In this document: piece after piece, positions 1,120-60,663 of the stretch
Layout of the letters: each line of letters starts with the position of its first letter
Numbering within the stretch: position 1 is the first letter of the stretch
Assembly (NCBI RefSeq): GCF_964019385.1
Contig: NC_088643.1
Coordinates: 4,558,301 to 4,622,300, forward strand
DNA from: Sycon ciliatum
Lineage: Eukaryota > Porifera > Calcarea > Leucosolenida > Sycettidae
DNA length: 64,000 nucleotides
Direction: 5' to 3'
The notes under the pieces: model-generated
Databases searched by the model: none
Seen by the model: the letters and a program-made list of their open reading frames with translations, nothing else
Told to the model about the DNA's origin: nothing
Position numbers and translations under genes: made by a program

Positions 1120-4100
1120 CTAGTAAAGTGCCTATTCAGGATCACAATGAACACACGCAAGCAGTAACACGTACTGAAGCATCACCGAGTCCTGTGTAGT
1201 GTGGGTTTTTTCCAACAATTCCCTCATACTACTTCTCAGGCAGGATCCAAACAACAGGCAGCAGCAATGAAATGTGTTGTGTTCTAATCCTTCATGACGG
1301 CGCATTGAATTGTGTTTCGTTTGCCCTTAAAAGAGGCTCGTTACTTGGAGCAAAGAACACAGCCAGCACACCATATATATGCCTCTAACCAAGAGTACAT
1401 AACCCCCAAGAGTGTGCAACTGCCTGCACAACCTCTATGCTGTGCTGCGACGGCAGAACTTCACATCACGTGACATGGTTCAAAAGGTTACACTGGCAAA
1501 CAGTGCAAAGTGACCACAAGAGAGTTTACCCAAAGCTGGGTTGCGTACAACCCTGTATCAATCATGCACAGAGTGCAAATAATGTGTACGGGTTCATCAC
1601 GTGATGTGAAGTTCTGCCGTCGCAGACCCCATAGCTAGCTGGAGTTGCACACTCTTGGGGGTTATGTACTCTTGCTCTAACGCGTACCAGTACAACACCG
1701 TGCACTGATTCAGTGGCAGGCTTAGTCACACGTAAAACATACGGGAATGTGGATGACCCATGCAATGTTCAGGATACTGTGGACTCCGGTTTGTAACGTA
1801 GCAGGTCACACGAATTTTAATAATGTCAAAAATACAGATGTAATCCTGCTATTTTAGCCACAGAATACTTGAATGAGGGCCTCTGTACAGGAAGGAACAA
1901 AAGCACTTCGAAGTACACCCTGTGTATATTTACTGTATCAGTCGTGACCAGGGAGTCATAATATTATAAACAACTGCCTGCTTGTGGGTTGACTGTTTAT
2001 GGCATTATTCATGATCTCAGAGTGCTGTCCAAGGTGAGTCATCAGAAAGCAGTTAGGGTTTCAGCATGTCTGTTTCTCTACAAGCATGTATCAACGCCCC
2101 CCCCCCCCCCCTTTCTCTGTGAGCCCCCTATTTCAAGTCAAAACGTTAGGAAAGAGTTCAAAAGAGCAAAGTCATAAATCATGTCCCTACGGCGAATCGT
2201 TTGCTGCATGCACCGGCAGCACTCCAGCGAGGGCCCTTGCCGAATGCGAGGGATGATAAGGAGCTGATAGGTCACCTACCTGGAAGATCCACTTTGTTGC
2301 TAAGGACCTTTTCCACCTGAACAAGCAATGGCAAAAGAAATAAACACGAGTAATGGTTGATCGTAACAGAAGCCATTATGGCCACAGTATACACACGGGG
2401 CTGCAGGTTGTGGTGGAGAATTGCTTTACGGCAATGCATACAATCATGAGCAGAGACAAAATTTTCTTTTCGTAGTCTACTCAACACGGCTGATCACACA
2501 GCACGAGGCTATGTTCCCCAACACAAGAGAGGACTGTACATGGCTATATCAGTATCATGGCCACATAGTACAGGGGTGTATGGCCCCTGGACAGGGGTAT
2601 GTGGCTCCTGGGCAGGGGTGTGTGGCCCCTGGGCAGGGGTGTATGGCCCCGGGCAGGGGATATAGCCCTGTACAGGGGTGTATGGCCCCTAGGCAGCGGG
2701 ATATGGCCCACTGGAGGTATGCTATACTGAGCCGGGTTCGACTGCGTCTTCTGCAGGCGGCAATGCAGTATTACCTTGTGGCTTGAGCTGAACTCGTAGA
2801 CACACATATCAACAGAGCATGTGCCAGCGTCGCCAGTAGCCGCACCACCCTCCACTGTCAGCAAGTGGTACGTTTCCCTTGCACTGCACACCATGGAGGA
2901 CAAGCAGAACACATCCAGGGGAACACACATGTACAAAAGGTACAACAGGCATAGCCAGGTCCATAGGCACATTCTAAAAAGGTATATTCAAATACACCGA
3001 TGGGTACAGACATGCATGTGAATTCACACAGACACACAGACACACACGCACACATACACGCACACACAGACATGCATACACAGACACACACACCCTTGCA
3101 CACTGGTTCGCCTCAGAGCTTATGAACACTCCCACACACTAACCGGCACCACTATACCTGAATTGAATATCTACAGGGCTTGCGTCTGTTCGAGTGTGCC
3201 AGATGAGCTCCACCTTCGAACTGTCGGCAAGAACACAACGCAATGTAAATGGGAATGCAGCCACAAAGTATGGCAAAAGCAAGCAACATGAGTATCTTGA
3301 CGTCCAGAGAACACTGAACTACACGTTTTAGTCCAATAGAGCCACCATCCAACAGAAATGATGGCAAGGCACTGACGAACGATAGTGTCGTCAAACTAAG
3401 AGCGTTTCTTATACGTCCCCCGGATGACTGTACTCCCGCACACGGAGCAACAGTTAAAAGACAACGAGACAAAAGCCAGGCACAGGAACATACCCTGGCG
3501 AGGAAACGAAAATAAGGGGAAAGTGCCGGCAACTATCGTGATTCGTGATGTTGAGTAAGGGAAGGTGACGTGCACTCACATCCAGATAGGAGCTCTAAAT
3601 CTGGAAAGAAGAAAAGGCTCACCTCCTATCTAGCGATCACTGGATTAATAGAGGGTAACAAGAATGTCAAGGAATTGGCCGACCAACAAGGTCATTAATC
3701 ACTGCAAGGACGTGCCTACGACACCCACCTCAGACTGAAAAGCAGCAGATTAGAGGCGTTGACTCTCTTCTCCGGCACTTTGGACAGGCCTGCCCACGGC
3801 CAGGCGTCCTCTGCTGAGATGGGCCACCACACTGCAAGCTACACGGAGTGACAGAGAGACAGGAGGACTTGCCGCCCAGGTACACAATACACATGCACAC
3901 CATGATCAGGGTTCTAGCCAAAGGGGTAGGGGCAGGGTTCTTGCCAAAGGGGTAGGGGCAGGGTTCTAGCCAAAGGGGTAGGGGCAGGGTTCTAGCCAAA
4001 GGGGTATAGGCAGGGTTCTTGCCAAAGGGGCAGGGGCAGGGTTCTTGCCAAAGGGGTAGGGGCAGGGTTCTTGCCAAAGGGGTAGGGGCAGGGTTCTTGC

Positions 4101-7100
4101 CAAAGGGGTAGGGGCAGGGTTCTTGCCAAAGGAGCAGGGGCAGGGTTCTTGCCAAAGGGGTAGGGGCAGGGTTCTTGCCAAAGGGGTAGGGGCAGGGTTC
4201 TTGCCAAAGGAGCAGGGGCAGGGTTCTAGCCAAAGGGGTAGGGGCAGGGTTCTTGCCAAAGGAGCAGGGGCAGGGTTCTTGCCAAAGGGGTAGGGGCAGG
4301 ATTCTTGCCAAAGGAGCAGGGGCAGGGTTCTTGCCAAAGGGGTAGGGGCAGGGTTCTTGCCAAAGGGGTAGGGGCAGGGTTCTAGCCAAAGGGGTAGGGG
4401 CAGGGTTCTAGCCAAAGGGGTAGGGGCAGGGTTCTTGCCAAAGGGGTAGGGGCAGGGTTCTAGCCAAAGGGGTAGGGGCAGGGTTCTTGCCAAAGGGGTA
4501 GGGGCAGGGTTCTAGCCAAAGGGGTAGGGGCAGGGTTCTAGCCAAAGGGGTAGGGGCAGGGTTCTTGCCAAAGGGGTAGGGGCAGGGTTCTAGCCAAAGG
4601 GGTAGGGGCAGGGTTCTTGCCAAGGGGGTAGGGGCAGGGTTCTAGCCAAAGGGGTAGGGGCAGGGTTCTAGCCAAGAGAGCAGGGGCAGGGTTCTTGCCA
4701 AAGGAGGAGGAGGAGGAGGGGGGGGGGGGGTATTTGTGTCTTTTTAGTTCACTCAGCGAAAATACAGGCACAAATCGATCGTTCCAGGTGCTCTGTGCAC
4801 CCGTACGTAGAATGTTTGTGACAAGGCAATAGTGGAAGCATGAAAAAAATGGGTGAGCTGTTTGTCGCCTTCTACTGGCGATGCTGGCACGTGCTCTGTT
4901 GATATGTGTGTCTAAGAGTTGCCAAAGCGATCGTGTGACGGTTGCCAAAGGTATCATGTGATGGTTGTCAAAGCTATCATGTGATGGTTGCCAAAACTAT
5001 CATGTGACAGTTGCCCAAGCAATCATGTGACAGTTGCAAAAGCTATCATGTGACGGTGTTCAACCCTCTTCGAAGATGTATATTGTACTGTTGAGGCAAC
5101 AAACTAAAATTAACCAAAAACAAAGAAACAAATGGTTGCCAAAGCTATTATGTGACCGTGACAGGGTCATACCCATGACTCACCAAATCAGCAGCCTTGT
5201 TGACGGAGACGTGCCGTTCCGTTCTCCTGGCACTGCTGGCCGGTGGCAAGTCGATATAGTTGACCTGGGAGATACAAAGAGAAGTGCCATGGCCGCAACA
5301 ATGAAGAAAGTGAATAAGAAAGCTATGGCGTGGGCCCGGTCCTTGTGGTAGTCCCACTGAACTATGGCTGATAGTTGCATGACTCTGGTTGTAATGTATG
5401 TTTTGTCTCTGTCAGTGATGCGCTTTCAGTAATCTGCTGATACTAGTATGCTAGAAGCATCCTAGACCTACCTGCACTGTGTTCCTTCTGTACGCATTCA
5501 CCACATACTTGGCATGCCCTATCCCTAGCGCTGGGTAGTACCATGCAGTCTACCAGCGACGTAGGTCGCACGTGATACTTGTTGTAGTGATTGTACATAT
5601 TGACGGATCCTGGCGCAAGGTCGAGGAGATCAAGAGAGAGAGCCCGAGAATGGCGGCCAGATCCTGAGTGTCCTAATTTATTATCCCGAACCGTTTTCCT
5701 TGTGTTTATTCTTATTGCATGTATTGATTAATCCCATTGCTGGATTGAACCGTGTTGGCTGGTGTGAACTGAGTGACGAGTTGACTGAAACATTGGCGCA
5801 GTGAACAGGATTCTTTTCTTAGTAAGTCACTCGTTGAACTTGAAGTTTGTAGTTTCCACCACGCACGTGGGAAATGGCAGAAAAAGTAAAAGTCGGCGTC
5901 CGCCTTGACCTGGACCACGAGCTGGGAAACGATCATTTCCTTACTTGGCGTAGTCAGTTGGAGATTGGCTTTGCACTCCACGAAGTGAAGGATCAGTCGA
6001 AGCAGTATTTGGCAGCAGCTGCCAATTTAGGCGAGTCAGCAAGTCACTACTTATGGCAGAGCTACCCGACAGTGCCAACTACGGCAACTAATCCCTACAA
6101 CGATCTTATCAAATTGTTCCAAGAATATTTCGGCTCGAAACAGAGCGCAGCGTCCCGTTTGGCGGAATTGTTTGCAGTCGAGCAACGTCCTGGGGAGACT
6201 GTACAGGCCTTTCGGCTGCGGGTGCAAAAGGACATGAGGGTTTGCAACCTGACCAGCACTCGTACTGCCGAGGAACTACTGGGAGTTGTGGGAGTCCACC
6301 TGTTTGCACGGGGGCTCAGCTCGGCCAGTGCCCGAAAGAGTGTCTTGGAGCACGATGCGCAGGACTTGAGCTCCGCCGCAGCCAAGGCGCAGGCAGTCGT
6401 GTTAGCAGAGGACTGTGCTAACAACGCTCCAGTACTGGAGGTGAGCTATGCCGCTATCCATCAACGCCGACACACAACATTGCCAACATCCGGCTGTGGA
6501 TATTGTGGGGAGAAGCACGCTCCAGGCAAGCCGCACTGCCCAGCGGTCCATATGTTCTGTGCCAAGTGTGGACGTAAGGGACACTTCTCGTCGGTGTGCC
6601 GTTCCGACTTTGGTCGAGCGGACCGCAGTGCCCAGACCCAGTTGCCGAACGCAGCATCAGCGCAACAGAATCGGACCGCACCAGCCGTATCGTCGCTCCG
6701 AACGGGTGCAGCATCACCAGCCGTACAGTCCGCCCAGACACCAGAGTCCTATGAAACCTTCGGGGTGCAGGCAGAGAAGACCGCCTTCACGCTTCCTCTG
6801 AGGCAGGTAACATTGGACAGCCGACACACATTGTCGCTAAGAGTGGACTCTGCCAGCAGGGTTTCGATTATCCCTAAGTCGGCACTCCCATCGGGGTACG
6901 TCTTGTCACCGCCGCCATGCCCACTTCAGCCCGTGGGAACGCAACGCATAACAGCCGTGGGAGTTTTTGATGGTAACCTGAGCTATCAGGGCCGCGAAAT
7001 CACTGAGACTATCTTTGTAGTCGATGACACACAGTGCACGGTGCCCGCGCTATTAGGAGAACAGGCCTCCATCCAGTTAGGTCTTCTGGCAATGTCGACT

Positions 7101-10100
7101 TCAGCCACTGATGTTCCAGCTGGTGCTCAGCGCCCAACATCACTACCTCCTCATGCCTGGCACACCGTCGCTATTGACGTGTTGTATTACCAGCAGAGCG
7201 TTTTCCTAACCCTTCTGGATTTATACAGCCGATATCCTGCAGTTGTACGTTTGCCAGCCGAGAAGACAAGTGACCTCATCGGGGCACTGGACCAAATATT
7301 CACTCTGTTTGGCATGCCACGACACCTAATAGCCGACAACCGTTCACCGTTCTGCAGCGACGAATTCCGCAAACAGCTCGAGTCATGGGGAATCAGTCAC
7401 GAGTGCACTGTCCCCAACACGCCGCAGCAGCATCCACTTGAGCGTCTCCACCGGACATTGAAGCAACACATGCGACAATCTGGCGAGACACGAACAGAAG
7501 ACGCACTTCGTTTGGCACTTCGAGCAGTTCGGTCAGCCGTCAACACGACTACCGGCAAACGTCCGGGTGATCTACTGCTGCGAGGAGGTTATCACACCCC
7601 GCCCGTACAGCTTCGGCCAGGCGATAAGGTGGCTACAGACGACGATGATGACGAGGTACACGAGGAACTGCACGAATGCGGTGCTCAGCCATCTGCCATC
7701 GTTACCGCAAACCCTAGTACGGTTCAACCAGCTTCTAGTCGTCCGCAGCGTAAGACTCAAACGCCAAGTCGCTATCGGTAGACCGCTGGTCTTTTTCTGA
7801 AAAGGGGGGAAATGTGGTAGTCCCACTGAACTATGGCTGATAGTTGCATGACTCTGGTTGTAATGTATGTTTTGTCTCTGTCAGTGATGCGCTTTCAGTA
7901 ATCTGCTGATACTAGTATGCTAGAAGCATCCTAGACCTACCTGCACTGTGTTCCTTCTGTACGCATTCGCCACATACTTGGCATGCCCTATCCCTAGCGC
8001 TGGGTAGTACCATGCAGTCTACCAGCGACGTAGGTCGCACGTGATACTTGTTGTAGTGATTGTACATATTGACGGATCCTGGCGCAAGGTCGAGGAGATC
8101 AAGAGAGAGAGCCCGAGAATGGCGGCCAGATCCTGAGTGTCCTAATTTATTATCCCGAACCGTTTTCCTTGTTTAAATAACCGACGAGGAGACAACAGTC
8201 GTAAAATAGCAATGAAAAATATCAATTGTGCACTCATAATCATGTATAAACAATTAAAATGAAACAATTCCAGAACGTTTTCGTGTGACCATCATCAGTG
8301 GAACATCGTCACATAGCAAGAATCACTAAAACAACCAGTTATATAGCTAGAGTAACATGAAAAGAAGCGTGAGAATGCAGCACAGCTAGCGGTTATGCAT
8401 AACGCGTGTAGTGTGAACCTTTGCAGTGTATCTGAGAATGGTAGCAGTAGATGAATGTGGCAGCTGTGAGTGCGTGTGAACAAAAACTGGTGAGTGTGTA
8501 TTATTTAAAAAGTGTGAGTGCTACAACATTTTCTTTTTGCTTGCATAGAACAGGGTCACGTGTGCGAATATATACAGCTTCCAACACCTGCAACTGCTTA
8601 AAGAAACGCGCGCGACAAATAACACTAAACCAGGAATCGTCAAACAACTTACGACAATCCGGACTGGACACCAAATGCTTGTAGATGGCAGACTTGCTCT
8701 TGTCGATGTCGAACTCCTCCTCGTCCGTATCACTCTCATCCTCCACTTCCTGCTCCCGCTCACCCTTGCTTTCCTCCTGACCATCCTGTTCATCCCCATC
8801 ATCATCCTCCATCTCCATCTCCTCATGCCATCGCTTCTTTCTCCTTGACGTGTTCACTGCTGCGCCCGTACTTTCACCTGCCACTACTGGTTCCGCCTTC
8901 TCCATTTTTCTCAGTCGTGTCTCCGCTAGTCTCTGGCTTCTCCTCAGATTCGTTTTTCCTCCATTTTCATTTCGTTCTCCTGGTGATCTTTCCGTTACCG
9001 CCGTCAGGTTTGTTAACGAACGATCGTCCGGTGGTCTCCCATGCCGTGTTGTTGTCGTCAAGAGTGACACCAGATTCGTGTGTTGCGCTACTGTTGAGTC
9101 CGGTGTTGTATCCGTTTCCGGTTGTGTTGTAATACTGACAGGCGTAGTAGTAGGCAACGGGTGTTTTCTCGGCCTCCCACGCTTTGGCCTGCCTGCCCTG
9201 GCCGCTTTTGACAACAAGGACAATGGGACGTGTTGTTTGATACGTTCGGACAAGTGTTGAAGCGTCCTGCCAACATACCGACTACCGCACTGTCGGCATT
9301 CAAAATGATAAATGAGGTGACTCAAATGATGGGTCGGCAGGACGTCCTTCAACACCGTGAACGAACGTATCGTGGTGAAGACAGTTACTACATTCACTGC
9401 ATAGTACGTCTTCTGGACAATAGACTTGACAATACGACTGACCTTTGTCGACTCCGCGCCTTTCCAAGGCAGGCACAGGAAGACACGACAAGGAGCCGGG
9501 CCGATTGTCAGTTCCTTACGGGGCGCATTGTTCGTGAGTAGTTTCGCTAACAGTGATCCTGGATACCCGTTCTTAAGAAAGACAGAGCGAAGGAAATCAA
9601 GTTCTGCTTGCAGTTTACTCTCGGAGCAAATGCGTCTTGCCCTGTCAGCTAAGTTTCGGACTAGATTGGTCTTGTATTGCGAAGAGCAATATGAATCGTA
9701 CATAATATACTGACCAGTGAATGTAGGCTTACGATACACCGATGTCACAACACCCTCACATGTCTTTTCCACGAGTACATCTAAAAACGACAATTTGTTG
9801 CAATCCTCGTGTTCACATGTGAAGCGTAATGCAGGGTGGACATCATTCAACTCATCTAGAAAGGCTTCACTGTCACGTCTTGTTTCGAAATAGGTAAATG
9901 AGTCGTCCACAAATCGAACGTACAACTGAGGCCACTTTATTTTGTCCATTCTCGATTCGCAATATCCAACGAAGACATTTGCCAGTACCGGGCCCAACGG
10001 AGACCCCATCGCCACACCGTCTGTCTGCTTATACATAACATCACCAAACGAGAACTCTACGCCACTCGTCACCATCAGCATCAAACGTCGAAATGCTGTC

Positions 10101-13100
10101 TCAGGTAACCATGGAAGATCAATGTCATCATCATTGTGGTATAGTCTTCGCGCGCAGATATCTATTGTCTCGTCTAGTGGTACGTTTGTAAACAAGCTTA
10201 CAACATCGAAAGAGCACATATGGGCAGTAGGCGGAATAGGGTTGTCACGAAGGATTTCAACGAATTCAAACGTGTCCTTAACGTTGTGTTTACAATAATG
10301 CTCTAATACCGGTTGTATCATGCCGCAGAGCCACTTGGATATAGCGTATTGGGGCGATCCTATCATGGAGAGTATGGGTCTAAGCGGGCAGGATGGTTTA
10401 TGTATCTTGGGGAGGCCGTACATGCGCGGACGAACCGAACCGATAGGCTTGATTCGGAAAAACTCGGATTCTGTTATGTCTTTTGCTGCTCGGAGTTTCT
10501 TCAGATAGGTTACTATTTCCTTCTCCCGAGCCAATGTTTTATCATGTGTTGAAACCGGACCGAGTTCCACAAATTTACACCCGTCGTCCAGTATGGTAGC
10601 CATTTTTGTATTATACTCCATTCGCGTTAAGATAACTGTTGCCCGACCTTTGTCTGGCCGAGTGATGATGATATCATTGTTCTTTTTCAGCTCTGAACGA
10701 GCTTTCATGTGTTCGCGGGATAGTGAAAATGTTCTCCGTTCAGCGGGTTTGTCAGCGTGTTCCTCGGCTGTAGCACGCACTGTGGCCGTACACACCATTT
10801 TCTTTGATTCCGATACCGGTGCAAAACCACTCAATTTCCGATAGAATAATTCAAAATCACATAGTACTCGCTCTCTCATGTTTGATGTTGGTGGTATGCC
10901 GAAATCTACGCCTCTAGATAGTAGCTCCTTGGATCACTGTTAGCGAAACTACTCACGAACAATGCGCCCCGTAAGGAACTGACAATCGGCCCGGCTCCTT
11001 GTCGTGTCTTCCTGTGCCTGCCTTGGAAAGGCGCGGAGTCGACAAAGGTCAGTCGTATTGTCAAGTCTATTGTCCAGAAGACGTACTATGCAGTGAATGT
11101 AGTAACTGTCTTCACCACGATACGTTCGTTCACGGTGTTGAAGGACGTCCTGCCGACCCATCATTTGAGTCACCTCATTTATCATTTTGAATGCCGACAG
11201 TGCGGTAGTCGGTATGTTGGCAGGACGCTTCAACACTTGTCCGAACGTATCAAACAACACGTCCCATTGTCCTTGTTGTCAAAAGCGGCCAGGGCAGGCA
11301 GGCCAAAGCGTGGGAGGCCGAGAAAACACCCGTTGCCTACTACTACGCCTGTCAGTATTACAACACAACCGGAAACGGATACAACACCGGACTCAACAGT
11401 AGCGCAACACACGAATCTGGTGTCACTCTTGACGACAACAACACGGCATGGGAGACCACCGGACGATCGTTCGTTAACAAACCTGACGGCGGTAACGGAA
11501 AGATCACCAGGAGAACGAAATGAAAATGGAGGAAAAACGAATCTGAGGAGAAGCCAGAGACTAGCGGAGACACGACTGAGAAAAATGGAGAAGGCGGAAC
11601 CAGTAGTGGCAGGTGAAAGTACGGGCGCAGCAGTGAACACGTCAAGGAGAAAGAAGCGATGGCATGAGGAGATGGAGATGGAGGATGATGATGGGGATGA
11701 ACAGGATGGTCAGGAGGAAAGCAAGGGTGAGCGGGAGCAGGAAGTGGAGGATGAGAGTGATACGGACGAGGAGGAGTTCGACATCGACAAGAGCAAGTCT
11801 GCCATCTACAAGCATTTGGTGTCCAGTCCGGATTGTCGTAAGTTGTTTGACGATTCCTGGTTTAGTGTTATTTGTCGCGCGCGTTTCTTTAAGCAGTTGC
11901 AGGTGTTGGAAGCTGTATATATTCGCACACGTGACCCTGTTCTATGCAAGCAAAAAGAAAATGTTGTAGCACTCACACTTTTTAAATAATACACACTCAC
12001 CAGTTTTTGTTCACACGCACTCACAGCTGCCACATTCATCTACTGCTACCATTCTCAGATACACTGCAAAGGTTCACACTACACGCGTTATGCATAACCG
12101 CTAGCTGTGCTGCATTCTCACGCTTCTTTTCATGTTACTCTAGCTATATAACTGGTTGTTTTAGTGATTCTTGCTATGTGACGATGTTCCACTGATGATG
12201 GTCACACGAAAACGTTCTGGAATTGTTTCATTTTAATTGTTTATACATGATTATGAGTGCACAATTGATATTTTTCATTGCCGTTTTCCTTGTGTTTATT
12301 CTTATTGCATGTATTGATTAATCCCATTGCTGGATTGAACCGTGTTGGCTGGTGTGAACTGAGTGACGAGTTGACTGAAACAGTCCTTACACCCGCAAGC
12401 AGCTCTCATAGCTATCCTCTCTCTCCCTGTCTCCAGCTCTGACCTTCGTTTTGGCAATTTGCCCCATTATAGCATCTTTTCTATATGCGTTGCACTGGCA
12501 TGTTGAGGACATATAACTATTGAAGACCTGATATCCAAAAGGCCTACTTGGTCATACGCACTCATAGGCATGCACTGGCATTCGAACTGACAACGGGTGT
12601 TTAGTGCTGAGCAGGTCATGTGTACCCACCATATCTTACACGAAGTGTGGAGGACTATGGTACGGCTGGACTAATCATAACTACTTCCGCCAGTCATGCA
12701 GTGGTGAGAGCTCATCACACCAAGAGTGTACTGTAAAACATGTAATTTTAGGTGCATTCAAATTTCGGTGCCAGGCACCTGCCAGGTTTCAGCTGTAATC
12801 TAGAATTAGGTGACCAGCGTTCCCTTCACATACAGTGCATACTCTAGTGCCTTGTAGGTGTAATTTAAATTTAGGTGCCTGGTTTCTCTACTGAAATCAC
12901 CGAAATTAAAGTTACACCACAAATTACATGATTTCCAGTATACCTGCCTGTATTGTCTGTATCCAGTGATGTGACTGCAACCGAGTTGTGCATACCAGGA
13001 CATGGTTGGATAGATTACGCTGACAAACAGTGCAAAGTGACCACCAGAGAGCTGTACCGGCTAAAGCAGGGTTACACACAACCCTGTAGCTATCATGCAA

Positions 13101-36321: not shown

Positions 36322-39300
36322 CTAACATTCCAGTGGACATACTCGAGTGATGGATCTCTTCAGAGTCTTCCCGCCCACTTGCATGGCCACCACACGCACA
36401 TGTCCGTCCGGACCAGGGAAAACTTCCGTGACTCTGCCGAGCGGCCAACGCCCACGCGGGGAGCTTGAATCCATCACCAGGACAACGTCGTCAACGGCCA
36501 GATCGCGTCGCTGGTGTCGCCACTTCATCCGCTGATTCAACCGTGGGACAAACTCTTTCAGCCAGCGATGCCAGAAATGGTCGATGAGCATTTGAACATA
36601 TCTCCAACGTCTCTGCAGTTGACACCCCTTCTCGTCCGTTGTTGCAATAACCAGCTGGCCCTCGGCCATGCCATGAAGGAAATGGTTCGGAGTTAGCGGC
36701 CCTGGATCCTTCGGACTAGCCGATTGGTAGGTGATGGGCCTGGAGTTGACGAGGGACTCTGCTCCGCTGAGAGCGGTGACCAACTCCTCGTCCGTCACAG
36801 ATGCGTCTCCAAGGATGGCGTGTAGAGCTCGTTTGGCGGCTCGAATCATTGCCTCGTGAACTCCCCCGAAATGAGGAGCTAATGGCGGGTTGAAACTCCA
36901 TTTCACGCGTCTGCAGGCCATGGCTTTCCGGACGGTGGTATTGTTCAGTTGGCCAACAAGCTCACGTAGCTGGCGGTCGGCATTCACGAAGTTGCCTCCA
37001 TTGTCCGACAGAACCTCCATTGGACAACCTCGTCGGTTGGCCATCCGGTTAAAGGCGTTCAGGAAAGAATTTGCATCCAATGCGTACGCCATCTCCAAAT
37101 GGACCGCACGAGTCAGCAAACACGTGAAGAGGCACAGATAGCGTTTGTGGCGAGTCTTTCCTCTCCCCTGCATAGTTTCGAACGGCCCTCCGTAGTCAAC
37201 GGCTACCCTGCTGAAGGCTCTCAGTGGCTCACACAATCGCTTTGCTGGCAACGGGGCCATGATTTGCTCTCCCGCACGGGCTTTTAGTCGTCGACACACC
37301 ATGCAGTCTTTCTCCCAGTCACGGATCTCCTCCCGTGCTGCTTCGACAAGATAGTGATCAGAGAGAGCTGCCAACGTTTCATTCGTCCCGCCATGATGAC
37401 GTTGCTCATGGCAATCTTTGACAATAAGCCGGGTGGTCGGATGTTTCCGGGGGAGAAGAATCGGGAAGCGCACATCAAACGGCAACCAGTCAGCCAGCTT
37501 GGTGCGACCATCGCAGCGCAATAGTCCGTCGTCGTCCAGTCGAGGCGATAACCTCGCCAAACGTGACTTCAGCGGAAGTGGTTGACCATTCTTCACTAGC
37601 TTCAGATCCTCCGCGAATGCCTCGTGCTGTGCCTCTTTGATGATGGAAAGGCTGGCAGCGTCCATCTCCTCGCCGGTTAGCTCTCCGCTCAACTCCTCAC
37701 CTCCACGGCAGTTGGTGATGAAGCGAATTGCCCAAGCCCGTACTCTGACTACGCGCGTCCAGTCTGAGAAGCGCCGAGAGCACAAGCTGGGTACTTTCTC
37801 GGACATAAATGACATCACCTCGGGCTGTGCAGCCTTGCGAGCTTCCGCTCGGGCAGCTGGGTCTTGGCCACCCACGATCTTGGCTGGCCATTCAGATTCT
37901 TCTTTCTGCAGGAAGGCCGGTCCTTGCCACCACAGCTCAGTTGCAACCAGTTGCTCTACCCCAGCTCCCCGTGACGCCAAGTCAGCTGGGTTGTCGCTGG
38001 AGGGAACGTACCGCCATTGACTGGGCGACGTAACAGTCTGGATGTGGCTGATGCGATTCGCCACAAACGGTTTGAAACGTCGGCTGTAGCTGCGAATCCA
38101 GAGCAGCACAGTCGCACTGTCGCTCCAGAAAATCACCTCTGACATGGCAATGGTCATGATCTGACTGAACTTCCGGGCCAGCTGAAGGCCAAGCACAGCC
38201 GCCAGCAATTCCAGCCGGGGGATACTTTGTGTTCTTGTCGGCGCCACTCTGCTCTTGGCTCCAGCGAGACGAACGTTTCCCTCAGAGCCACGCTGCACGG
38301 TGGAGCTGTAGACCACGGCACCATACGCCACACTCGACGCATCACAGAAAACATGCAGCGTCACTCCACTGGCCACGTCCGGGATGAGACATCTTGGTAC
38401 TCGAACTAAACTGAGCTTCGCCAGGTCATTGAACCACTGGCGAGCGCTGGTGTCGATGCCATCTGGAACCGGTTCATCCCAGTCAATACCAGCTACCCAA
38501 CTCTCTTGCATGAGGATCTTGGCTTGGGTCACGAACGGTGCCAGAAACCCCAACGGGTCGAATACGGACGCGACTTTTGCTAGGAGGAATCGCTTGGTGA
38601 TGCGTTGGTTGGTGAGGTCTGGCGGTTGAACGCTGAAGAAGAAGCAGTCTGCCTGACCGTCCCATGACACTCCTAGCGTCTTCACGGATGGTAGCTCTCC
38701 TTGGGATAAGTCCAGCTGGGTAGCGCGAGCCTCGGCTGGAATTACCTTCAGGAGCTCGGGCGAGTTGGACACCCACTTGCGCGGCGTCATCTTGGCCTCA
38801 CCCCACAGATCCATTAGCTCCCGATGAAGAATCTGACCTTGTTCGACATCTTTGGTGCTGTCCATCGTGTCATCCATGTAGGTGGACGCGAGGATAGCTT
38901 CTGCTGCCAGGGGATGCGACGCCAAATGTTCCCGGGCTGTCTGCTGAGCAACGTACTGGGCGATGAATGGTGCAGCATTGACGCCAAAGACCAGGCGGTT
39001 GAACTCAAAGTGCCGTAAAGGCTTGGCCGGATCCAGGTCCCGCCACACGAATCTGAGGTACTTCCTGTCTGCTGGCGCAACCGACACCTGCAAATACATT
39101 TCGGTCACGTCACAGCCCACTGCTATAGGCTTTTGCCGAAACCTGGTCAACACATCGAACAACTCACGTTGGAGCTTCGGACCAGGGTAGATGGCATCGT
39201 TGAGGCTGAGGCCATGACAGGATGCTGCAGCGTCAAAGACGATCCGCACCTTGGTTGTCGTCTTCTGCGGTCGGACGATGGGAAAGTGGGATAAGTACCA

Positions 39301-42300
39301 GCATACCTCTTGACCTAGCTCTTCCTTCGCGAGCTCCCGGATATAGCCGTTCCTCTGGTAGGCCTGGAAGACTTGGCCATAAGCCTGGGCAACGAATGGG
39401 TCTTTCAGGAGCTTGCGCTCGGTGTGGCCTAGACGTTTCGTAGCCGCACCCAAGTTGTTGCATAATTCTCTCTTACGATTGTTCCACGGCAGAGACACCT
39501 GGTACCGACCGTCCACCTTCTTCAGCGAGTGTTTGACGATGTCTAGGGCTGTCTCTTCCTCCAGCGAGCGCGGGCCGGGCTCACTGAAGCTCTCCTCCGT
39601 GCCGCAGCTGTCAATTTGCCAGAACTGCTGTAGCGCGGTCTCTAAGCCGGTTGGTGTTGCTCTCTCCTCACTCTGAAACGCTTGGCTGTGGAACGTCCTT
39701 TGACTCGAGTGGGTTCCCGTCACTCTGCCAACACAGGTCCAACCCAGTGGAGTATGACGCGCCACTGGTTGACCAGGCGGGCCGACCACTTCCTGCTGTG
39801 ACACAAGCAGCTCAGCATAGTCGCTCCCAATCAGCAGATCGACCCTGGCGGGCTCCGCCAGTCTTGCGAACGGAATCTCTCTCAGATGAGGATACTTGAC
39901 TGCTTCCTTGACCCACTCTACCGGACGAAGATTCCCGGTGACCGAATCAGCCGTCAGCGCCGTCATAGATTGCCGAACACTGCCATCCATGCTGCCAATG
40001 GTGAAGCTTACTGGTCTGGTTGTGAATGAGGTCTGCTTGCCATTCAAGGTGTGGACTGTGAATGTCCTCAGCTCCCCGCTGACGCCGAGCTGGTTGGCAA
40101 TGCTGCCGTTGAGGTAGCTCGTCGTGCTACCGTCGTCCAGCAACGCATTCACTTGCACTGACTTGTGGCCGTTCTCCAAGACGACTGAGACCGTTCGCAG
40201 AGCTATCTTGCTCGGGCCTTGGACCATCATGGTGGAATCACTCTTCGTGGACTCCGTCTCCCCCTCGGTGAACGACTGTGGGGTGCGCTGCTCTTGGTCT
40301 TTACCGGCGTATGGCGGCGTTACTAAACAGTCGATGGCGGGAGGCAATAACTGGTCCCCTGTCTCCTGACCTGAACCATTGTCTCCATAGTTGCAGAATT
40401 GTTCGGCAGGACTGAGTTGGGACTTGTCCGCCGTCATTCCTCCAGCTGCCGTGTTCCCCGATTTTTTCTTGTTTGACTGTGCGGCATCGGGGTCCCTGCT
40501 GTCCTCGTGTAGCAAGTCCCGGTGTAGCAAGTAGTGGTGATTGTTGTTGCAGCCGCTCACTGAGCAGGGTCTGGTTCGTGGACAGAGGTGACCTTGGTGA
40601 TCGCCTCCAAGGCAGCGGTAGCACAGACCATGCTGTTTAGCCTGTCTCCAGCGATTGGCGACGGAAAGCTGCTGAAATGCTTTACACTGCCAGACACCGT
40701 GAGGTCCGCCACATTGCCGACATGAAGATCGTCCAGCCGCTGAGCCCGCAGGCCTTGACCACCCTGCATTCTGCGAAGCCTTTCCCCCGAAGTAGGATCG
40801 TTGAGGAGCATTTCGGGGTGCCGGAGGCTTGTCCTTCGCACCAACTCCATCTAGTGCTTCGGACGCTCCAACGGCAAACTCCGCTTCCAACGTCACCCAC
40901 TCCAGTAGTGCTTGAATTCCTGGCTGGCAGGGCTTCTGATGACACCATCGATTGAATTGGGTTAACATCCCAGCCGGCAACTTGGCCAGGAGCTTCCGGT
41001 ACAACAGCCCATCACCCAGCTCATTGCCTTTTCCGGAGTCGAGGAGGTTGACCACGAGTACGTCGAGGAGATCTGCGAACTTCTGGAGATCTCCTGCTCG
41101 GCCGGAACGAATGATTGGGCAGGCCTCGACGTGCTCGTACTGCAGCGACAGCTGTCGTTGGTCGCCTCCAAACTTGCGGTCTAACCGCCTTATTGCGGCC
41201 TCATACGCAGACGGGGTGTATCCCAAGCTCTCGATGGAAGCCAAGGCATCTCCACTCAAATACTGCCGGAGGTGCAGCAGTTTCAAGTCTGCCCTTGCAG
41301 ACGAGCTACCAACACACGCCATGAAAGCAGCCTTCCATGAGGCATACGCCTGCTTATCGCCGCCGAAGACTGGGATCTGTATAGCCTTCAGTTGCTTGAA
41401 AATTTCATCTGATGGCTGCTTGACAGGTGGAGGCTGAGACACAGCACGCTGGTGGCTGGCGGACACACCTGCTCCTGGCAATGCTGAAAAGGCACCAATG
41501 CCCATGGCCTGATGACTTGAGGCTACCTGTGGTGGCCCACTGGCCTGGGTGTACAGATAGTTGGCGGACTGATATGGCAGAGATGATGTAGGGTGTAGTC
41601 CTGACACAGGAGCCTGAGTACTACTGCCCTGCTGGCCTGGACTCTTCGCGACTTGAAGTTGAGGGGCCTTGGTCTCACTCACTCTAGTATATGCACTGGA
41701 CACACATACAGCACTCCGTGTTGGCACAGCAGGCTGTAGTACAGGCAAGGCAGGGCTTCTTTCACGCTCTGACCTCCTACTCCCAGCTTCCATTGGTGGC
41801 CTTGTTCTAGCCCCAAGCTCTGCCTCTCTGTTACTACTGCTGGAGACACTTGTGGTCACAACCACTTCATCACTGTCTTCTACTCTTGCCTGGTTCTCCT
41901 GAACCAGCGCCACGCCATCACCAGGCTCATCCCGATCCTGGGAGCCTTCACTTCTGCCCAGCGATATCACACTCAGTGGACTTCCTGGCTCTTCCACTGG
42001 TGCCTGGGCATACTGATGATACGCTGGCCTGTCTGGGTGGCTGTTCCGTGCAGCCGTCCACGCTGGCTGGTGTTCTAGGAACTCCTGATACAGCCTTGTG
42101 ACCTCCTTCATCTCTTTCTCCGCTTCCTCCATCTCATCGGTCACTTTAGCCACTGCGAGCGCATCGTTCATGCCGCCAGCCCACTCGAGTACGTCCATGA
42201 ACACACCGTTCAGGACATCCTCGATCATTTCTAATTCGCCAAACAACGACCTCGCAGCTTCCTCTTCAACTCCGTCACGCAAGGCCACGATCACGGCTCT

Positions 42301-42525
42301 GCGACACCTGGTGAACTTTCTCTTGCGATTCGCTTTTTCAGCTTTCATTTTCACGAACATCAGTTCATTCGATCGCTGGTCACTTTGACCATGTTCGTCC
42401 TCTTCGACTTCCTCGTCCTCCTCGATCACGTCGCCTGCCCTCTCTGCCATGGCACCTAAAAAGAGCTCAGTTCTCTGACTGCTAGCCCTGATTGTGCTCT
42501 CACTCTCAGGCTCCGGCGACGACAT
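36322..42525 (-). CDS. BEL/Pao gag-pol polyprotein, intact
   Basis: 2067-codon single ORF. Domains in order: charged, Ser-rich N-terminus; DUF1759-type gag (about 370-530); Cys/His zinc-knuckle region (about 600-670, CRQCGGPHGVWQC and CYRCLGGDHQGHLC); pepsin-like protease with LLDDGSTTSYL (about 793); RT with the catalytic YMDD at 1216-1219; RNase H with FCDASS (about 1393); integrase with a His/Cys region (HHGGTNE ... CMVCRRLK) and D-D-E core (VAVDYGGPF about 1773, LSDNGGNF about 1838, then PHFGGVHEAMI); and the C-terminal DUF5641-type domain (WPLGRVTEVFPG). This order (PR-RT-RH-IN) with DUF1759 and DUF5641 is diagnostic of BEL/Pao. No stops or frameshifts. The start is the first ATG, 70 bp inside the 5' LTR. 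Confidence 0.96.
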   Translation of the reverse strand: MSSPEPESESTIRASSQRTELFLGAMAERAGDVIEEDEEVEEDEHGQSDQRSNELMFVKMKAEKANRKRKFTRCRRAVIVALRDGVEEEAARSLFGELEMIEDVLNGVFMDVLEWAGGMNDALAVAKVTDEMEEAEKEMKEVTRLYQEFLEHQPAWTAARNSHPDRPAYHQYAQAPVEEPGSPLSVISLGRSEGSQDRDEPGDGVALVQENQARVEDSDEVVVTTSVSSSSNREAELGARTRPPMEAGSRRSERERSPALPVLQPAVPTRSAVCVSSAYTRVSETKAPQLQVAKSPGQQGSSTQAPVSGLHPTSSLPYQSANYLYTQASGPPQVASSHQAMGIGAFSALPGAGVSASHQRAVSQPPPVKQPSDEIFKQLKAIQIPVFGGDKQAYASWKAAFMACVGSSSARADLKLLHLRQYLSGDALASIESLGYTPSAYEAAIRRLDRKFGGDQRQLSLQYEHVEACPIIRSGRAGDLQKFADLLDVLVVNLLDSGKGNELGDGLLYRKLLAKLPAGMLTQFNRWCHQKPCQPGIQALLEWVTLEAEFAVGASEALDGVGAKDKPPAPRNAPQRSYFGGKASQNAGWSRPAGSAAGRSSCRQCGGPHGVWQCKAFQQLSVANRWRQAKQHGLCYRCLGGDHQGHLCPRTRPCSVSGCNNNHHYLLHRDLLHEDSRDPDAAQSNKKKSGNTAAGGMTADKSQLSPAEQFCNYGDNGSGQETGDQLLPPAIDCLVTPPYAGKDQEQRTPQSFTEGETESTKSDSTMMVQGPSKIALRTVSVVLENGHKSVQVNALLDDGSTTSYLNGSIANQLGVSGELRTFTVHTLNGKQTSFTTRPVSFTIGSMDGSVRQSMTALTADSVTGNLRPVEWVKEAVKYPHLREIPFARLAEPARVDLLIGSDYAELLVSQQEVVGPPGQPVARHTPLGWTCVGRVTGTHSSQRTFHSQAFQSEERATPTGLETALQQFWQIDSCGTEESFSEPGPRSLEEETALDIVKHSLKKVDGRYQVSLPWNNRKRELCNNLGAATKRLGHTERKLLKDPFVAQAYGQVFQAYQRNGYIRELAKEELGQEVCWYLSHFPIVRPQKTTTKVRIVFDAAASCHGLSLNDAIYPGPKLQRELFDVLTRFRQKPIAVGCDVTEMYLQVSVAPADRKYLRFVWRDLDPAKPLRHFEFNRLVFGVNAAPFIAQYVAQQTAREHLASHPLAAEAILASTYMDDTMDSTKDVEQGQILHRELMDLWGEAKMTPRKWVSNSPELLKVIPAEARATQLDLSQGELPSVKTLGVSWDGQADCFFFSVQPPDLTNQRITKRFLLAKVASVFDPLGFLAPFVTQAKILMQESWVAGIDWDEPVPDGIDTSARQWFNDLAKLSLVRVPRCLIPDVASGVTLHVFCDASSVAYGAVVYSSTVQRGSEGNVRLAGAKSRVAPTRTQSIPRLELLAAVLGLQLARKFSQIMTIAMSEVIFWSDSATVLLWIRSYSRRFKPFVANRISHIQTVTSPSQWRYVPSSDNPADLASRGAGVEQLVATELWWQGPAFLQKEESEWPAKIVGGQDPAARAEARKAAQPEVMSFMSEKVPSLCSRRFSDWTRVVRVRAWAIRFITNCRGGEELSGELTGEEMDAASLSIIKEAQHEAFAEDLKLVKNGQPLPLKSRLARLSPRLDDDGLLRCDGRTKLADWLPFDVRFPILLPRKHPTTRLIVKDCHEQRHHGGTNETLAALSDHYLVEAAREEIRDWEKDCMVCRRLKARAGEQIMAPLPAKRLCEPLRAFSRVAVDYGGPFETMQGRGKTRHKRYLCLFTCLLTRAVHLEMAYALDANSFLNAFNRMANRRGCPMEVLSDNGGNFVNADRQLRELVGQLNNTTVRKAMACRRVKWSFNPPLAPHFGGVHEAMIRAAKRALHAILGDASVTDEELVTALSGAESLVNSRPITYQSASPKDPGPLTPNHFLHGMAEGQLVIATTDEKGCQLQRRWRYVQMLIDHFWHRWLKEFVPRLNQRMKWRHQRRDLAVDDVVLVMDSSSPRGRWPLGRVTEVFPGPDGHVRVVAMQVGGKTLKRSITRVCPLEC

Positions 42526-46058: not shown

Positions 46059-46533
46059 ATGCCTCATCACTGCTGTGTCCCGCAGTGTGTTTCCAACAGC
46101 GGAAAACCTGGAGACGACGCCGTCGCATTCCACAGTTTTCCTGAGACAAAGACCTGAGAAAGCGTTGGATCGCCAACATTCCAACATTCATAGGGATGTA
46201 GGAGCCGCTTTCACCATCACGAAGCACACGAAAGTGTGTTCTCGGCACTTCGCGGATGAGGTATATCACGCAGGAGCACACAAGCGACCGTCCGAGCAGA
46301 AGAAGTCACAACAGACTCGCCGAAGGCTTCTGCCAACTACCGTAGCTACGATTTTCGATTTTCGCCCTGAAGTGACTAAGCGCAAGCCACCAGCAGAAAG
46401 ACACGCGCTGCCCTCGGCAAAGAAGCCAAAGCCATCAGCTCAAGGCGCCTCCAGTGTCATCACCCAGTCTGCAACTGCCACTGATGTTGTCCCTTCTGCA
46501 GATGACTCCCCAGACGTATGTAGTACCAGTTGA
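46059..46533 (+). pseudogene. THAP zinc-finger part of the transposase, frameshifted
   Basis: The C2CH THAP signature is spread over three frames: HHCCVPQCVSNS and FHSFPE from ATG 46059 to a TGA at 46155; LRKRWIANIP in the next frame; then KHTKVCSRHFADEVYH in the frame that stays open to 46533. Each shift needs one small indel. A basic, Pro/Ser-rich linker follows. Confidence 0.7.
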
Positions 46534-47602
46534 ACACCAGCACTGTGAATGTGTTGAAATGCTGAGAGCAGAAGTGGATTTGCTCAAGAGTGAGAACGAG
46601 GTCCTCAAAAGTCATTGCTTGGCCACAGAGGACATGGAAGCCAAGTTAAATGCTGCAGAGAGACATGTGTTCTCTATCCACAGAGTAAAAAATAACCAGA
46701 AATTATTGTCTTTCTACACTGGATTTTCATCGTTCCTTATGTTCATGGCGTGCTTCAACTTTCTGCACGATTCCGCCAAGGTGATGCGGACGTGGATGGG
46801 TTCACGGACGGCACCTGATGACGCGATGCAACACGGCAGCAAACCAGGCAGTAAACCGAAGCTAGAGCTGATGGAGCAGTTCTTTCTCGTCCTCGTCCGT
46901 CTTCGTCTTGGACTGAAAGAAGTTGAACTTGCCGACAGGTTTAAAGTCCACCCATCCACTGTCTTGCGCACTGTCACAACCTGGGTAAATTTAATGTACC
47001 ATAAGTTTCGTCAACTTCCATCTTGGCTTTCAAGGAGAAGAATAGACAAATTGATGCCACCTGCATTCAAGCAGTGGTATGCAACAACTCGCGTTGTGAT
47101 TGACTGCACAGAGTTTTTCATTAACATCCCATCATCACTGGCGCGGCAGAGTGCTACGTGGTCGGCGTACAAGAACCACAACACGGTAAAATGCCTTATC
47201 GGCATTGCACCGCATGGCCATGCGACATTTGCTTCGAAAGTATTCGAAGGATCTGGGTCGGATCGTGCCATCACAGAACAGAGCGGCCTAATCAGTTTAT
47301 TAGAGCATGGCGATTCCATTATGGCAGACAAAGGTTTTGACATACAAGATCTTCTTGTTAGCCATGGGGTCCGCCTGTACGTCCCCCCATTTCGCCAAGG
47401 AGGATGCCAAATGACCCCTCAAGATCTTGCAAGTACAAAGAAAATTGCTGCTGTACGGATTCATGTAGAAAGGAAAATGCAGAGGATCAAGTGCTTTGAG
47501 ATCATTGGCAAGGAAGTTGATAATGCTATGTTTGACATTCTAGACCAGCTTATTTACGTGTGCGCAATGTTGACTAATTTCCAGGGCTCGTTGGTGGCAT
47601 AA
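46454..47602 (+). CDS. DDE transposase (DDE_Tnp_4 type)
   Basis: 382-aa ORF. An N-terminal Cys/Leu-rich coiled stretch (about 30-75) and a helix-turn-helix region (about 138-185, LRLGLKEVELADRFKVHPST) are followed by the catalytic core: D217 in VVIDCTEF, D292 in IMADKGFDI, E339 in RIHVERKMQRIK. SAYKNHNTVKCLIGIAPHG is a signature of the IS4EU/ISL2EU transposases. The ORF overlaps the THAP frame by 80 bp in another frame, so a frameshift separates domains that are normally fused. The core itself is intact. Confidence 0.85.
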   Translation: MSSPSLQLPLMLSLLQMTPQTYVVPVEHQHCECVEMLRAEVDLLKSENEVLKSHCLATEDMEAKLNAAERHVFSIHRVKNNQKLLSFYTGFSSFLMFMACFNFLHDSAKVMRTWMGSRTAPDDAMQHGSKPGSKPKLELMEQFFLVLVRLRLGLKEVELADRFKVHPSTVLRTVTTWVNLMYHKFRQLPSWLSRRRIDKLMPPAFKQWYATTRVVIDCTEFFINIPSSLARQSATWSAYKNHNTVKCLIGIAPHGHATFASKVFEGSGSDRAITEQSGLISLLEHGDSIMADKGFDIQDLLVSHGVRLYVPPFRQGGCQMTPQDLASTKKIAAVRIHVERKMQRIKCFEIIGKEVDNAMFDILDQLIYVCAMLTNFQGSLVA

Positions 47603-60117: not shown

Positions 60118-60612
60118 TGTTGTGGAGATGTGTTACTTTGTTCAGGATGCCTTGTAATAATCAATATGACTGTCCCGAGGTGACATCTCAGTGTGCTGTG
60201 TGCTGTTGTTCCTCGCTGTGTGCATTGTGGACATTCTCATGCATGTTTACTTGTCTGCTTGTCGGTGTCATGAATGATCATTAGTTCATTACCTCCTAGC
60301 ATGACGTTATTGCGCGCCAAATACGGTTTACCGTGCGCATGTGCACGCTCGCGCGCGTGCGCCAATGATGGTGACAATGCTAAGCTTGCATGCGTGACAA
60401 GTGGTTCTAGTAGTTGCAGTTGGGAGAGAAATGAGGTTCTTGATGGTTTGATCGAGGTGTTGCCGGTTGGCGGTTTTTTGCTCTTTACTCTAACTTTAGT
60501 CTAAGCCTTTATCGTTACTATTCATTACAACCCAGAGCCGTGTATGTTGGCTGGTCTGCAACGAGGTTGTGTGCGGGGGTAGTTGGGAGAGAGAGACTGT
60601 GTGACTATTACA
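60118..60612 (+). repeat. 5' LTR of the right-hand Gypsy-like element
   Basis: Same sequence as the solo LTR at 32407-32903. It is followed within a few bases by TGGTACCGAAACCCGG (60618-60633), a likely tRNA primer site. The left edge is uncertain. Confidence 0.65.
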
Positions 60613-60663
60613 GCTTGTGGTACCGAAACCCGGCTAGTGACTATTGTAGAGTTGTTCTGGTGT

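What the first reader, a model, noticed from the sequence alone, without database searches (positions are those of the whole stretch)
5874..7781. LTR element whose single intact ORF fuses gag-protease to integrase with no reverse transcriptase
Between a protease-like end (LLGEQASIQLGLL) and an integrase core with its D, D and E positions there are only about 30 residues; RT and RNase H are absent. The ORF is open over 635 codons, the LTRs are nearly identical and the target duplication is exact, so it seems to have transposed recently in this form. Non-autonomous LTR elements that keep gag are known, but keeping integrase while losing RT is unusual. It implies selection for supplying its own integrase while borrowing RT.
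Basis: partly seen in the sequence, partly recalled or inferred. Interest (0 to 1): 0.75.

Follow-up and report, generated by a model that had tools for sequence, protein, structure and literature searches.

The report
Sponge retrotransposon lacking its copying enzyme
A jumping element of a calcareous sponge has lost its reverse transcriptase yet keeps a capsid, a protease and the bare core of an integrase in one intact gene, exists in several young copies, and very probably spreads by borrowing enzymes from a complete sister element in the same genome.

Summary
ORF 5874-7781 (635 aa) joins gag-protease to an integrase core without RT or RNase H. LTRs are 449 bp, the 3' one split by a nested Penelope-like insertion; the 5-bp target duplication (GTCCT) is exact. 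An LTR search (40 of 90 candidates scored) led to four copies with the same join, intact ORFs, different exact duplications and near-identical LTR pairs. The genome (Sycon ciliatum, inferred) also holds full-size partners with matching LTRs; 5 of 12 have one intact ORF of 1312-1314 aa with RT and complete integrase. 'Supplying its own integrase' is weakly supported: HHCC and C-terminal domains are also deleted, and at 41 core sites invariant in outgroups the short form alone changed 7, the partner alone 0, including residues near the active site. Yet D, D, E are kept and core dN/dS against the partner is 0.11. I read it as a semi-autonomous gag-protease element moved in trans, the core mainly a remnant; a selected non-catalytic role is not excluded. 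Searches for closer RT-bearing donors did not complete, so the deletion's age is open.

The parts
5339..5343 (.). left target-site duplication GTCCT
5344..5792 (+). 5' LTR, TG...CA, 449 bp
   Evidence: same boundaries in other copies
5794..5809 (+). putative primer-binding site TGGCGCAGTGAACAGG, unchanged in the 5 full-size copies compared
   Evidence: tRNA partner not identified
5874..7781 (+). single ORF, 635 aa: gag - CCHC - protease - integrase core
6324..6397 (+). mosaic boundary: upstream nearly identical to the full-size partner, downstream strongly divergent
6558..6599 (+). CCHC zinc knuckle CAKCGRKGHFSSVC (aa 229-242)
6846..7058 (+). aspartic protease motifs DSA (aa 325) and LLG (aa 393)
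   Evidence: motif meaning recalled
7143..7150 (+). junction of deletion 1 (RT, RNase H, HHCC absent) at a CTnCCTnC match
7152..7478 (+). integrase catalytic core; D435 (7176), D488 (7335), E523 (7440)
7680..7697 (+). approximate junction of deletion 2 (integrase C-terminal part absent)
7799..7812 (+). polypurine tract
7813..8172 (+). 3' LTR, first part
8173..12280 (.). nested Penelope-like insertion (RT/GIY-YIG ORF 8501-10879 on -) with 13-bp duplication CCGTTTTCCTTGT
   Evidence: both Pfam matches lie below their curated cut-offs
12294..12382 (+). 3' LTR, second part (12281-12293 is the copy of the 13-bp duplication)
12383..12387 (.). right target-site duplication GTCCT

Best explanation
It is a semi-autonomous deletion derivative of a single-ORF Ty3-type LTR retrotransposon. 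Its RNA is made from LTRs like those of the full-size partner, is translated into Gag-protease with an integrase-core tail, and is packaged in mixed particles. Reverse transcription, RNase H and the working integrase come from the 1312-aa partner. The retained integrase core is mainly an in-frame remnant, not a self-sufficient integrase; a helping role in mixed complexes is possible. Shown: architecture, copies, target duplications, partner, mosaic 5' end. Inferred: packaging, trans-mobilisation, remnant status.
For: Four short copies on four contigs with the same join, three of them 99.3-99.4% identical internally to the window copy, ORF intact in 4 of 4, exact 5-bp duplications GTCCT, AAGAT, GGCAA, CCGTG. 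Full-size copies with LTRs 93-99.6% identical, the same PBS in the 5 compared, and 5-bp duplications in 9 of the 11 testable; 5 of the 12 with the whole coding region in view have an intact 1312-1314-aa ORF. Leader and gag nearly identical to the partner up to 6323, divergent from 6398: a 5' exchange, expected if both RNAs share particles. Short-copy LTRs interspersed among full-size LTRs (modest support). HHCC and C-terminal domains absent; 7 short-only against 0 partner-only changes at 41 outgroup-invariant core sites.
Against: dN/dS of the integrase core against the partner is 0.11 (95% bootstrap 0.04-0.21), a lower value than for gag-protease 174-410 (0.28), and D, D and E are kept. No transcript, particle or transposition data. 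Amino-acid changes fall almost wholly on the short branch, which a late deletion from an ordinary sister lineage does not explain by itself.
Confidence: 0.68

Rival explanations
1. The integrase core is selected in the short element for a non-catalytic or helper role, for example as an extra subunit in mixed intasomes or for holding partner integrase in particles.
For: dN/dS 0.11 in the core, ORF open in 4 of 4 copies, predicted fold intact, D-D-E kept while nearby residues changed.
Against: If the divergence predates the deletion, the low dN/dS is inherited. In a neutral simulation of 165 integrase codons, a phase of 25 random changes still leaves no stop in about 45% of runs.
Confidence: 0.18
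2. One reading: the element supplies its own working integrase and borrows only RT.
For: D435, D488 and E523 present; retroviral-integrase fold predicted; low dN/dS.
Against: HHCC and C-terminal domains absent; G to R, Q to P, Y to N, N to H in the core at sites invariant in the outgroups. That such domains are needed for full integration is recalled from retroviral work.
Confidence: 0.08
3. The deletion is recent: an unsampled RT-bearing sister lineage with this gag-3'/protease/integrase body lost RT and then amplified. This concerns timing and is compatible with the best explanation.
For: Low dN/dS of the body, very similar short copies, region-to-region differences in dS (0.31-0.87) as in a mosaic.
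Against: None of the full-size copies fetched carries the short-type body, but the fetch was partial. The full-size branch shows almost no amino-acid change while the short branch is long. The direct genome search did not complete.
Confidence: 0.45
4. Private deletion of one copy, or an assembly artefact.
For: None found.
Against: Four insertions with the same join and different target duplications on four contigs.
Confidence: 0.01

Closest known systems
Full-size partner family in the same genome (intact 1312-1314-aa ORF at loci L042, L043, L045, L048, L053)
   Same: Very similar LTRs, same PBS, 5-bp target duplication, leader and gag N-terminal part nearly identical; polypurine tract similar but not identical in the one compared, L042.
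   Different: Has RT, RNase H, HHCC and C-terminal integrase domains; gag 3' part, protease and integrase core diverge from the short form (dS 0.31-0.87).
Semi-autonomous RLG_Sabrina_SA and RLG_WHAM of wheat (passages of PMC9744471)
   Same: Gypsy elements with a gag-protease ORF and no RT, thought to be moved by an autonomous partner sharing PBS and LTR ends.
   Different: They are described as lacking integrase; here the integrase core stays fused in frame.
RLG_Quinta with partner RLG_Cereba, wheat (passages of PMC11302176)
   Same: Gag plus an extra domain in one ORF, no RT; partner with identical PBS and LTR termini.
   Different: Extra domain is of unknown function (DUF1); here it is a recognisable integrase core.
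P0002 and P0004 (ENA proteins, host unknown)
   Same: 46-50% identical to the window protein; gag-protease joined, at nearly the same point after the protease, to a late piece of the integrase; RT absent.
   Different: The catalytic core is absent and the C-terminal domain kept: the reverse choice.

Membership tests
Ty3/gypsy LTR retrotransposon (origin of the element) | LTRs TG...CA, PBS, polypurine tract, short target duplication | tested here: met
Ty3/gypsy LTR retrotransposon (origin of the element) | order gag-PR-RT-RH-IN in the complete relative | tested here: met
   full-size ORF of L042 has CCHC at 229, DSA at 325, YLDD at 595, HHCC-like motif at 957, core from 1018; P0006, 98% identical over 64% of the query, carries RVT, RNase H and H2C2 Pfam domains
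Ty3/gypsy LTR retrotransposon (origin of the element) | RT present in the element itself | tested here: not met
   4 of 4 short copies have the same 635-aa ORF
Ty3/gypsy LTR retrotransposon (origin of the element) | RT falls in the Ty3 clade of a tree | not tested
   no RT tree was made
Semi-autonomous (gag-bearing) LTR derivative | intact gag ORF, no RT, several mobilised copies | tested here: met
Semi-autonomous (gag-bearing) LTR derivative | PBS and LTR termini match an autonomous partner | tested here: met
Semi-autonomous (gag-bearing) LTR derivative | integrase absent (as in the described wheat families) | tested here: not met
   rve core present; but HHCC and C-terminal domain absent
Semi-autonomous (gag-bearing) LTR derivative | mobilised by the partner's proteins | not testable with these tools
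   needs an assay
TRIM / LARD | no coding capacity | tested here: not met
   635-aa ORF
Complete retroviral-type integrase | HHCC domain, DDE core, C-terminal domain | tested here: not met
   core only

The most novel reading that the evidence does not exclude
The integrase core is kept under selection in an RT-less element although it cannot integrate alone: a stripped, possibly catalytically altered core that joins the partner's integrase and biases mixed particles or intasomes towards the short element. Two separate deletions in this element group, one keeping the core and one keeping the C-terminal domain, both start just after the protease, hinting at repeated selection to keep gag-protease plus one integrase piece.
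Probability: 0.17. Interest if true: 0.68.

Novelty: new variant of a known kind. Interest (0 to 1): 0.44.

Why it matters
Gag-only and gag-protease partners of LTR elements are described from grasses in the papers I saw passages of; this is an animal (sponge) case with short and complete families in one genome, and with an integrase core retained in frame. The mosaic boundary inside gag records exchange between short and full-size elements, which makes co-packaging testable by sequence. If the core is selected, it would show that an integrase fragment alone can be worth keeping.

Tried and rejected
Private deletion or artefact: rejected, four copies with different target duplications. Splicing of the full-size RNA as origin of the join: in L042 the deleted stretch does not begin with GT at the left edge, while both edges share CTnCCTnC, so template switching at a short match is likelier. 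A match in phage records was sought for completeness: none. Whole-ORF structure model: too poor to use (pLDDT 33.6). Plain LTR ends at 5703/8172 (my first reading) were wrong; the 3' LTR is split by the nested element. Partial LTR hits: none of L058-L061 holds the short-type body (L058 holds a relative at 48-52% amino-acid identity). The rve search of the own genome (150 of 3665 candidates scored) returned other elements; tblastn of the ORF to the 8 loci fetched from it gave only 24-27% identity, over the integrase part. No paper describing an RT-less LTR element with gag-protease plus integrase core caught my eye in the listings, which cover open-licence PubMed Central papers only; I read passages of PMC11302176, PMC9744471, PMC5738225, PMC3735527 and PMC9324142 and no paper whole. 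This is not proof of absence.
Full report
Host. The genome searched has 538 Mb in 313 contigs. Its contig C7 is 36,034,923 bases long, the same length as the contig of P0005, which NCBI names Sycon ciliatum. C1 is 97,973,678 bases, against 97,974,678 for the contig of another Sycon ciliatum protein, P0195. I take the host to be that calcareous sponge (taxonomy); this is an inference.

Anatomy. The ORF at 5874-7781 is open over 635 codons. Pfam reports only the integrase core over its cut-off, with weak gag and zinc-knuckle matches below theirs. A CCHC knuckle (aa 229) and the motifs DSA (325) and LLG (393) mark nucleocapsid and protease (meaning of the motifs recalled). D435, D488 and E523 are the catalytic positions, conserved in 32 of 32, 33 of 33 and 31 of 31 relatives with a letter there, out of 37 aligned. 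The core model is good (pLDDT 86.8), and the 50 PDB matches listed, of 438 at E <= 0.001, are retroviral integrases.

Ends. The first-pass LTR match stops at 8172 because a Penelope-like element is nested in the 3' LTR. The rest of the LTR lies at 12294-12382 after a 13-bp duplication. The LTR is 449 bp and the element is flanked by exact GTCCT duplications. The two LTRs differ at one position.

What is missing. Against relatives and full-size copies, gap 1 runs from just after the protease to just before the core: RT, RNase H and the HHCC domain are absent. Gap 2 is 86 residues of the C-terminal part. Both keep the frame. At join 1 both edges in L042 share CTnCCTnC and the left edge is not GT.

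Copies. The LTR search scored 40 of 90 candidates, so counts are lower bounds. I fetched 19 stretches around hits of that list and 5 more later. Short copies: window, L039, L040, L044, i.e. 4. In 4 of 4 the ORF is 635 aa and intact. Internal identity of the other three to the window is 99.3-99.4%, with 1-2 amino-acid differences each. Duplications are GTCCT, AAGAT, GGCAA and CCGTG. LTR-pair mismatches are 1 (window), 2 of 449 (L039), 0 of 462 with 2 gap columns (L040), and 0 of 105 plus 0 of 357 with 2 gap columns (L044), the last three; L044 too has an insertion in its 3' LTR. Insertion ages were not calculated, as no rate is at hand.

Partner. Full-size copies with the whole coding region in view: L041-L043 and L045-L053, i.e. 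12; L054 and L056 are cut by the fetched stretch. Five of 12 have one intact ORF (L042, L043, L045, L053: 1312 aa; L048: 1314), in the other 7 the longest ORF is shorter. L046, L047 and L050 share the same 8 bases on the right and lie close together, so they may be segmental duplicates. LTR identity to the window is 93-99.6% over these 14 loci, taking matches of 100 bp or more. A 5-bp duplication was found in 9 of 11: L041, L042, L043, L045, L046, L047, L048, L051, L052; not in L049 and L050. L053 printed as false too, but it keeps only 24 bases of its 5' LTR, so I leave it out. The 1312-aa ORF of L042 has YLDD and an HHCC-like motif.

Mosaic. From 5793 to 6323 the window differs from L042 at 5 of 531 positions; from 6398 on differences jump to several per 50 nt, and the same break is seen against L045, L049, L053 and L056. 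The other three short copies lack a 6-nt piece of the leader that the window has, as do L045 and L056 but not L042, L049 or L053. LTRs of the short copies are interspersed with those of full-size copies, with modest bootstrap values. This is what exchange during reverse transcription of co-packaged RNAs would leave, but that is inference.

Selection. Short against L042: gag 1-172 dS 0.025; gag 174-285 dN/dS 0.33; protease 286-410 0.21; integrase core 0.11 (95% bootstrap 0.04-0.21); post-core 0.34. So the core has been constrained over the divergence from the partner. At 41 core sites on which all outgroup proteins with a letter agree (nine proteins used, at least five letters), the short form alone changed at 7, the partner alone at 0, both at 2; with a looser cut, 8 against 0 of 54. 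With four outgroups over a wider region it was 8 against 1 of 62, both 5. The changes include G490R, a Q to P, a Y to N and N520H, around the second Asp and before the Glu. In the gag-3'/protease part it is 2 against 0 of 39, or 4 against 1 of 81, both 10; in gag 1-172 no short-only change at 71 sites, both 4; post-core 1 against 0 of 14. Protein trees put nearly all change on the short branch (0.34 in integrase, 0.26 in gag-3'/protease; near 0 on the full-size side), though the nodes that place the short form have low support. I could not polarise silent changes. Hence two readings remain: constraint inside the short lineage, or constraint inherited from an RT-bearing sister followed by late relaxation. 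In a neutral simulation of 165 codons, 25 random changes leave no stop in 45% of runs and 120 changes in 3% (insertions and deletions not modelled), so a short relaxed phase is compatible with an open frame and a long one is not.

Second case. P0002 and P0004 join gag-protease to the post-core part of the integrase at nearly the same left point. They are 91-92% identical to P0007, an RT-bearing relative, over the gag-protease part aligned, and 37 of 37 residues identical after the join. So RT loss with gag-protease kept seems to have happened at least twice in this element group, with different integrase pieces retained. Their DNA was not seen.

Known parallels. Wheat RLG_Sabrina_SA and RLG_WHAM (gag-protease, no RT or INT) and RLG_Quinta (gag plus DUF1) are described as semi-autonomous or non-autonomous partners that may supply Gag (passages). 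Barley shows the same with PBS sharing (passages). BARE1 makes extra Gag by splicing (passages), a reminder that single-ORF elements may need a Gag surplus, which a gag-protease partner could supply. Retention of an integrase core is the feature I did not meet there.

Limits. The full census did not complete by the search machine (list in Tried and rejected). Expression rests only on P0001, a 383-aa EukProt protein 99.7% identical to the window over its length; its one difference is found in none of the four short copies, and whether it is a transcript or a prediction is unknown to me. Mobilisation in trans is inferred.

Noticed in passing
8173-12280: Nested Penelope-like element (RT and GIY-YIG matches under their Pfam cut-offs, 792-aa ORF on -) with perfect 1070-nt inverted arms 8490-9559 / 10931-12000 and a 13-bp target duplication.
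   Followed up: partly
3777-4830: Tandem array of a 26-bp unit (31 registers in the repeat scan), followed by a 23-bp-unit array at 4895-5078.
   Followed up: no
36322-42525 (-): Intact 2067-aa ORF that looks like a complete gag-pol of another LTR element (BEL/Pao-like by eye, not tested).
   Followed up: no
46454-47602 (+): 382-aa ORF resembling a DDE transposase by eye, not tested.
   Followed up: no
60583-61905 (+): 440-aa ORF with two CCHC-type knuckles by eye, perhaps gag of a further element.
   Followed up: no
P0002, P0004 (proteins, host unknown): Separate RT-less derivative: gag-protease joined to the integrase C-terminal part, core absent; left edge nearly the same as here.
   Followed up: partly
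L046, L047, L050 (G000:C2 33.72-33.83 Mb): Three full-size copies share the same 8 right-flank bases and lie within about 115 kb: probable segmental duplication of one insertion.
   Followed up: no
L044:2737-4601: Another short copy also carries an insertion inside its 3' LTR, as the window copy does.
   Followed up: no
L040 flanks: This short copy sits in a locally repeated sequence: the left flank ACTCACTCAGTATGTGAT recurs just right of the element.
   Followed up: no
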